This document shows positions 31,514-33,057 of a stretch of DNA of 64,000 nt, piece after piece. Origin of the DNA: Actinobacteria bacterium IMCC26077 (GTDB taxonomy: Bacteria > Actinomycetota > Actinomycetes > Nanopelagicales > Nanopelagicaceae). The notes under the pieces were generated by a model that saw only the letters and a list, made by a program, of their open reading frames with translations, was not told the origin of the DNA and searched no databases. Location: assembly GCA_002284915.1 (NCBI GenBank), contig CP015606.1, positions 1,116,001 through 1,180,000 on the forward strand, written 5' to 3'. Made by a program: the position numbers and the translations under genes. Position 1 is the stretch's first letter. Every line of letters begins with the position of its first letter.

Positions 31514-31586
31514 TGCCCCGAGTCGGATTCGAACCGACACTATGCAGTGTTTGAGACTGCCCTCTCTACCGTTGGAGTACCGAGGC
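31514..31586 (-). tRNA. tRNA with anticodon CAA (Leu by codon), class I shape
   Basis: Seventy-three bases fold as a complete cloverleaf: acceptor GCCTCGG/TCGGGGC with two G-U pairs, a D-arm with GG, an anticodon stem GCAGT/ACTGC with loop CTCAAAC, a five-base variable region ATAGT, and a T-arm GTCGG-TTCGAAT-CCGAC. The discriminator is A and CCA is not encoded. Anticodon CAA reads UUG, leucine, but bacterial leucine tRNAs normally have a long variable arm, missing here. It lies 22 bases after pyk and one base before the ANTAR gene, so it is probably cut from a longer transcript. Confidence 0.9.
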
Positions 31587-31608
31587 GTTATTCGATGCTA
31601 AGCAGAGT

Positions 31609-33057
31609 TTACCGATAGGCAGGAGCGATGCCAGCCACAGCATCGCCTATCCGATGGACTCGCATCGCATTCGTTGAACCCGGGATACCTGGCGGACTGC
31701 CGGCAACAATGACGATGTGCTCCCCCACGCTTGCCCTGCCAGTATCTAAGAGTGAGGAATCAATCTGCTTGACCATCTCATCGGTATGTTTTGCCGGCGG
31801 AATAACGATCGGCTCCACACCCCACGAAAGCGCGAGTTGGTGAGCGGTGCTCTCCTCGGGGGTTAATGCCAAAATCGGAATAACCGAGCGCAATCTCGAC
31901 ATTCGTCGCGCCGAATCACCGCTCTGCGTGAACGCTACGAGGAAACGAGCGCCAACTACCGCCCCAACTTCAGCTGCAGCCTTAGTTATTGCTCCAGATT
32001 TGGTATGTGGGTTATGGCGCAACTGGGCAACATCGCCCAAAGCCTTCTCTTCAGTCTTAGCGATGATTCGTGACATCGTCGATACCGCTTCGATCGGAAA
32101 CTTTCCTACGCTTGTCTCACCAGAGAGCATCAAGGTATCTGCGCCATCCAAAATCGCGTTCGCGCAATCGGTGGCCTCTGCTCGCGTTGGCGTCGGCTGA
32201 TTGATCATGGAGTCGAGCATCTGGGTCGCCACAATCACCGGTTTGGCATTCTCTCGAGCGGCAGTAATACACCGCTTCTGCACCAAGGGCACCTCTTCAA
32301 TCGGCAACTCAACTCCGAGGTCGCCCCGTGCCACCATCAATCCATCGAATGCGGCAACGATCTCATCGAGATTGGTGACCGCTTGTGGTTTCTCGATCTT
32401 CGCAATGACAGGAACCCGGACACCCAGTCGGTCCATCACTGCGTGGACGCCCGCTACATCCGATCCGCTTCGAACAAAGGAGAGCGCAACTAAGTCGACG
32501 CCAACGTTGAGAGCCCACTCGAGGTCCATGAGATCCTTCTCAGAGAGCGCTGGCACTGAAAGCGATGAACCTGGCGCATTTATTCCTTTACTGCTACTAA
32601 TCGGACCACCATTTCGGACTACGGTGAAAATCTCATTACCGCTAATCTTCGAAATCTGTAGCGATACCTTGCCATCATCAATTAAGAGAATATCTCCAGC
32701 AGCGCAATCCTTTGGTAGCCCTTTATAGGTGGTCGATGCTCGAGAGCTGTCGCCGACGATTTCATCAGTAGTGATCACGAAGGATGCGCCATCGCGAAGT
32801 AGATGTTCACCTTCAGTGAGCTTGCCGAGCCTGATCTTTGGCCCTTGCAGATCAGCCAAGATCGCAACATACGCGCCTCGCCGTCGCGACTCACTACGCA
32901 CGTTCTCGAGTAATTGCATATGTTGATCGCGCTCACCATGAGAGAGGTTAAGGCGGGCTACATTCATCCCCGCGTCGATCAACTGTCCAATCCGTTCAGC
33001 GCTCGCGGTTGCCGGCCCTAATGTGCAGACGATTTTGGCTCGACGTTGCGCGCTCAT
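31609..33057 (-). CDS. pyk: Pyruvate kinase
   Basis: Converts phosphoenolpyruvate and ADP to pyruvate and ATP. The 482 residues have KIVCTLGPAT at the start, the substrate loop MNVARLNLSHG, the catalytic-lysine motif VIAKIEKPQAVTNLDEI with MVARGDLGVELP, ATQMLDSMI, and a C-terminal allosteric-type domain. Length and order are typical. It lies 15 bases downstream of gltD and 22 bases upstream of the tRNA. Confidence 0.97.
   Translation of the reverse strand: MSAQRRAKIVCTLGPATASAERIGQLIDAGMNVARLNLSHGERDQHMQLLENVRSESRRRGAYVAILADLQGPKIRLGKLTEGEHLLRDGASFVITTDEIVGDSSRASTTYKGLPKDCAAGDILLIDDGKVSLQISKISGNEIFTVVRNGGPISSSKGINAPGSSLSVPALSEKDLMDLEWALNVGVDLVALSFVRSGSDVAGVHAVMDRLGVRVPVIAKIEKPQAVTNLDEIVAAFDGLMVARGDLGVELPIEEVPLVQKRCITAARENAKPVIVATQMLDSMINQPTPTRAEATDCANAILDGADTLMLSGETSVGKFPIEAVSTMSRIIAKTEEKALGDVAQLRHNPHTKSGAITKAAAEVGAVVGARFLVAFTQSGDSARRMSRLRSVIPILALTPEESTAHQLALSWGVEPIVIPPAKHTDEMVKQIDSSLLDTGRASVGEHIVIVAGSPPGIPGSTNAMRVHRIGDAVAGIAPAYR

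What the first reader, a model, noticed from the sequence alone, without database searches (positions are those of the whole stretch)
31514..31586. Class I-shaped tRNA carrying a leucine anticodon
The cloverleaf is complete, with a perfect anticodon stem and loop CTCAAAC, anticodon CAA for UUG. The variable region has five bases, while bacterial leucine tRNAs are class II with a long variable arm that LeuRS and folding expect. It may be charged poorly with leucine, charged with another amino acid, or used as a regulatory or processing element.
Basis: partly seen in the sequence, partly recalled or inferred. Interest (0 to 1): 0.65.

Follow-up and report, generated by a model that had tools for sequence, protein, structure and literature searches.

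The report
Short-arm leucine tRNA in Actinobacteria
The gene is a real leucine transfer RNA that lacks the long side arm textbooks assign to every bacterial leucine tRNA; in many Actinobacteria such short versions are the only decoders found for the UUG and/or UUA codons, and here the tRNA also ends one base before the start codon of the next gene, so cutting out the tRNA may create that gene's message.

Summary
In detail: window 31514-31586 (-) is a complete tRNA with anticodon CAA and a 5-nt variable region. It is not aberrant: 58 of 61 family genomes (Nanopelagicaceae) hold it at 89-100% identity. The genome has a second short-arm leucine tRNA (UAA), and no long-arm CAA or UAA tRNA was found; long-arm leucine tRNAs here read only CUN codons. 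In six other actinobacterial genomes read individually, CAA and UAA are each covered by one gene, short- or long-arm in complementary combinations. About 67 of 198 Actinomycetota genomes hold a short-arm UUR tRNA-Leu. The tRNA keeps the E. coli leucine identity elements (A73, A14, A15-U48, G18G19, A20a); UUG aligns with Leu at 10 of 10 conserved glutamate synthase positions; one LeuRS gene exists. So it is very probably an ordinary elongator tRNA-Leu. Poor or wrong charging is not supported, though charging was not measured. In 89 of 118 family junctions the pdtaR ATG lies exactly 1 nt after A73; the other 29 start further downstream, behind purine-rich Shine-Dalgarno-like leaders. Five of 46 tRNAs in this genome show the geometry, suggesting that tRNA processing creates near-leaderless mRNAs (inferred).

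The parts
31514..31586 (-). tRNA-Leu(CAA), short variable region (class I shape)
31551..31553 (-). anticodon CAA (positions 34-36), reads UUG
31539..31543 (-). variable region ATAGT (positions 44-48); U48 would pair with A15
31572..31573 (-). A14 and A15 of the D loop, leucine identity elements
   Evidence: PMC9976931
31513..31513 (-). C74, the single base between A73 and the pdtaR start codon
30925..31512 (-). pdtaR-like response regulator with an ANTAR domain; ATG at 31512-31510
   Evidence: ORF; family named from sequence resemblance, not by a profile search; junction conserved
31595..31600 (-). TAGCAT, -10-like box (TANNNT) 8 nt upstream of the tRNA
   Evidence: TANNNT 3-25 nt upstream in 111 of 118 relatives versus 17, 24 and 38 of 118 in three wider (38-nt) control windows
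31609..33057 (-). pyk (pyruvate kinase), upstream co-directional gene
   Evidence: named from sequence resemblance

Best explanation
A functional elongator tRNA-Leu that decodes UUG, charged by the cell's single LeuRS together with the long-arm tRNA-Leu species. It belongs to an actinobacterial group of leucine tRNAs (anticodons CAA and UAA) that lacks the long variable arm but keeps the D-arm, hinge and discriminator bases recognised by bacterial LeuRS. Lack of the arm is tolerable because bacterial LeuRS identity, as known from E. coli, rests on A73, A15-U48, G18G19, A20a and D/T-loop contacts. Shown here: structure, conservation, sole-decoder status in this genome as far as searched, codon meaning, single LeuRS gene. 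Inferred: that LeuRS charges it. Secondary and inferred (confidence about 0.5): the tRNA is co-transcribed with pdtaR from a promoter just upstream, and 3' maturation (RNase Z) releases a pdtaR mRNA that is leaderless or has a 1-nt leader.
For: Conserved in 58/61 family genomes. The RF00005 inventory of the genome plus a T-arm pattern scan, with ARAGORN (introns allowed) on 20 loci around unassigned pattern hits, finds no class II CAA or UAA. The class II Leu model R2 finds only GAG and TAG (plus CAG in G003) as long-arm Leu tRNAs in seven family genomes, own included. In six other Actinomycetota genomes CAA and UAA are each represented by one gene among those read, class I or class II. R2 ranks this genome's UAA class I tRNA next after its class II Leu tRNAs (64 bits); the CAA tRNA scores 52, just below one tRNA-Thr at 54. 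A15-U48 with A73 occurs in all four Leu tRNAs here and otherwise only in Ala(tgc) and Arg(tcg). UUG aligns with Leu at 10/10 and UUA at 7/9 positions conserved in at least 4 of 5 GltB from other phyla; UUG makes 71 of 394 Leu codons in eight window genes. One LeuRS over the curated cut-off per genome. E. coli LeuRS identity does not depend on the long arm (PMC9976931).
Against: No aminoacylation or expression data for this organism. The codon test uses one protein. R2 scores the CAA tRNA no better than one tRNA-Thr, so the leucine case for CAA leans on anticodon, identity bases, codon meaning and similarity to the UAA tRNA rather than on R2. Low-level mistranslation is not excluded.
Confidence: 0.9

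Rival explanations
1. The tRNA is charged with a non-leucine amino acid and recodes or mistranslates UUG.
For: Its shape is unlike the long-arm Leu tRNAs; actinomycetes have dual-identity tRNA-ProX species (review PMC11415595).
Against: UUG/UUA at conserved Leu positions; Leu identity elements kept; no other UUR decoder found besides the equally short UAA tRNA.
Confidence: 0.03
2. It is a tRNA-like regulatory or processing element only, or a decaying gene, with UUG read by the UAA tRNA.
For: Start codon of pdtaR 1 nt downstream; the UAA tRNA could read UUG by wobble.
Against: Anticodon loop and tertiary-contact bases kept across the family; in Streptomyces-like G083 the UAA tRNA is class II (bldA-like) and the only CAA gene found is class I, while bldA null mutants of Streptomyces are viable (background knowledge), so the class I CAA tRNA should read UUG there.
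Confidence: 0.05
3. On the junction only: the 1-nt spacing to pdtaR is a by-product of genome streamlining with no functional coupling, or pdtaR has an internal promoter inside the tRNA.
For: These genomes are small; a TANNNT-like string occurs inside the tRNA at its variable region in all copies.
Against: Exact offset 1 in 89 of 118 distinct junctions, the other 29 starting further downstream behind AAGG/GGGG-like leaders (by eye); the same offset recurs at tRNA-Pro(GGG)/CDP-alcohol phosphatidyltransferase in most relatives and at tRNA-Arg(TCT)/orn, tRNA-Arg(TCG) and tRNA-Ala(GGC) in this genome; the internal TANNNT would start transcription inside the T arm, not at the ATG.
Confidence: 0.4

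Closest known systems
Bacterial class II tRNA-Leu (including Streptomyces bldA, UAA)
   Same: A73, A14, A15-U48, G18G19, A20a, 3-bp D stem, T loop, leucine anticodons
   Different: No long variable arm: 5 nt instead of a stem-loop
Animal mitochondrial tRNA-Leu(UUR)
   Same: Short variable region, UUR codons, identity set by A73 and A14 (PMC9976931)
   Different: Stable, fully canonical cloverleaf in a free-living bacterium; independent origin assumed
Short-variable-loop tRNA-Leu(TAG) of a mycobacterial tRNA cluster (PMC6582537)
   Same: Leucine anticodon, short variable region, Actinobacteria
   Different: That one is an extra cluster-borne copy beside a normal long-arm isoacceptor; ours is the only CAA gene found
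Mitochondrial tRNA punctuation
   Same: tRNA directly abuts the start codon; processing would free a leaderless mRNA
   Different: In a bacterium, at some tRNAs only; processing not demonstrated

Membership tests
Functional tRNA-Leu | Cloverleaf and Rfam tRNA model | tested here: met
Functional tRNA-Leu | Leucine anticodon, and the codon means Leu | tested here: met
   anticodon CAA; UUG at conserved Leu positions
Functional tRNA-Leu | Bacterial LeuRS identity elements A73, A15-U48, G18G19, A20a | tested here: met
   against PMC9976931
Functional tRNA-Leu | Aminoacylated with leucine in the cell | not testable with these tools
   needs a charging assay
Class II tRNA | Long variable arm | tested here: not met
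   5-nt variable region
tRNA punctuation (leaderless mRNA made by tRNA processing) | Start codon abuts the tRNA 3' end, conserved | tested here: met
   89 of 118 junctions at offset 1
tRNA punctuation (leaderless mRNA made by tRNA processing) | mRNA 5' end made by tRNA 3' processing | not testable with these tools
   needs 5'-end mapping of RNA

The most novel reading that the evidence does not exclude
Streamlined Actinobacteria use a bacterial form of tRNA punctuation: tRNA 3' maturation creates leaderless (0-1 nt leader) mRNAs for pdtaR, a CDP-alcohol phosphatidyltransferase, orn and others, coupling their expression to tRNA processing, alongside class-switched UUR leucine tRNAs.
Probability: 0.5. 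Interest if true: 0.7.

Novelty: new variant of a known kind. Interest (0 to 1): 0.55.

Why it matters
[quoted passage not shown] Many Actinobacteria, including Mycobacterium-like and Streptomyces-like genomes, break this rule, so their single LeuRS must accept both shapes. This bears on LeuRS recognition, on tRNA annotation by isotype models, and on LeuRS as a drug target. The tRNA/start-codon junctions make a directly testable case for tRNA-processing-dependent leaderless translation in bacteria.

Tried and rejected
Class II CAA/UAA in the same genome, including intron-split genes: looked for, not found. Second LeuRS: not found; other matches lie far below the cut-off and look like related synthetases. 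Codon reassignment: rejected. Outgroup survey with model R1 in another phylum: not possible with the handles available (error), so restriction to Actinomycetota was not tested; short-arm tRNA-Leu genes also occur in phages of several hosts. Fold stability alone is not informative (z -1.56). The held papers gave no report of class I tRNA-Leu as a phylum trait, but one notes that among M. [quoted passage not shown] absence from this library is no proof of novelty. No paper on tRNA punctuation in bacteria was found in the one search made for it.

Full report
Observation. The minus strand at 31514-31586 encodes a complete tRNA. The window is positions 1116001-1180000 of a one-contig 1.55-Mb genome, and relatives found by DNA pattern are mostly Candidatus Planktophila and other Nanopelagicaceae.

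Is it a working gene? The same tRNA is found in 58 of 61 genomes of the family at 89-100% identity. Most copies differ only at a few stem or T-loop bases, and the frequent GGGG/GAGG change turns a U-G acceptor pair into U-A.

Who else reads UUR? The RF00005 inventory (47 hits) read with ARAGORN contains four Leu tRNAs: GAG and TAG with long arms, UAA and CAA with short arms. A T-arm pattern scan of the whole genome, with ARAGORN allowing introns on loci around 20 unassigned hits, added none. A covariance model of class II tRNA-Leu (R2) applied to seven family genomes, three of them named (P. versatilis, P. lacus, IMCC26103), found GAG and TAG (and CAG in G003) as the only long-arm Leu tRNAs; every CAA and UAA gene listed is short-arm, and IMCC26103 has two UAA genes.

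Wider distribution. A model of the short-arm UUR tRNA (R1) scores 72 bits or more in about 67 of 198 Actinomycetota genomes (my count; matches just below reach about 70 bits, so the border is not clean, and not every anticodon was read). Class I CAA genes lie near pdtaR in Streptomyces-like, Mycobacterium-like and more distant genomes, in 18 of 20 loci checked. In the six genomes read individually the two UUR decoders are complementary: both short in G131; UAA long (bldA-like) and CAA short in G083 and G091; UAA short and CAA long in G290, G120 and G068. This is the pattern expected of functional replacement. Genus names for G-handles are my inference from genome size and grouping; named support comes from a M. 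abscessus prophage record that begins with the 3' part of a short-arm UAA tRNA and from an Ashballer phage tRNA-Leu(taa).

Identity. In this genome A15-U48 together with A73 is found in all four Leu tRNAs and otherwise only in Ala(tgc) and Arg(tcg), which have ordinary 4-bp D stems (D stems read by eye). The short-arm tRNAs share the D-loop layout with class II Leu. In E. coli the essential elements are A73, A15-U48, G18G19 and A20a, and the long arm is not required (PMC9976931). Short-arm UUR tRNAs are 66-86% identical to one another and 53-72% identical to other isotypes of this genome. R2 ranks the UAA short-arm tRNA directly after the class II Leu tRNAs; the CAA tRNA scores 52 bits, next to a tRNA-Thr at 54, so this last test is supportive for UAA and neutral for CAA.

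Codon meaning. In glutamate synthase, UUG codons align with Leu at 10 of 10 positions conserved in at least four of five relatives from Bacillota and Pseudomonadota, UUA at 7 of 9, CUN at 45 of 56. One LeuRS gene passes the curated cut-off in each of eight genomes.

Junction with pdtaR. Between A73 and the ATG there is one base, C. In relatives 89 distinct junctions have this exact offset; 29 do not, and their downstream sequences show purine-rich AAGG/GGGG-type leaders before a later start (SD-like reading by eye, no score computed). A tally with a different uniqueness rule gave 80 of 117. A TANNNT box lies 3-25 nt upstream of the tRNA in 111 of 118 relatives, against 17, 24 and 38 of 118 in three 38-nt control windows. 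A TANNNT string also lies inside the tRNA, at the variable region, but is badly placed for a leaderless start. In this genome five of 46 tRNAs have a long ORF starting exactly 1 nt after N73; tRNA-Pro(GGG) shows it in most relatives, while tRNA-Arg(TCT)/orn is rare (2 of 30 loci). Leaderless genes are common in Actinobacteria (PMC3160421; PMC4633059). I infer that tRNA 3' processing frees a leaderless or near-leaderless message; no RNA data were available.

Conclusion. The tRNA is very probably an ordinary leucine decoder of unusual shape, part of a phylum-wide variant that contradicts a textbook rule. The junction with pdtaR is the more open and more novel part.

Noticed in passing
L005, L030, L011, L023 (own genome): tRNA-Arg(TCT), tRNA-Pro(GGG), tRNA-Arg(TCG) and tRNA-Ala(GGC) are each followed after one base by ATG or GTG of a long ORF (oligoribonuclease-like, CDP-alcohol phosphatidyltransferase-like, permease-like, SDR-like; names from sequence resemblance).
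   Followed up: partly
L034 (G000:C1:190500-195000): Cluster of Val-like tRNA genes, two with 8-nt anticodon loops by ARAGORN (aacg, cacg).
   Followed up: no
L065 and L069 (G000:C1:163552 and C1:722229): Partial copies of the 3' half of tRNA-Lys(CTT), possibly attachment-site remnants of integrated elements.
   Followed up: no
L318 (G091): An additional short-arm tRNA-Leu with anticodon TAG.
   Followed up: no
L246 (Mycobacterium phage prophiGD90-1, 1-50): The record begins with the 3' 50 nt of a short-arm tRNA-Leu(UAA), suggesting that this gene is the prophage attachment site in M. abscessus.
   Followed up: no
G000 whole genome: No tRNA-Leu(CAG) was found here although G003 of the same family has one.
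   Followed up: partly
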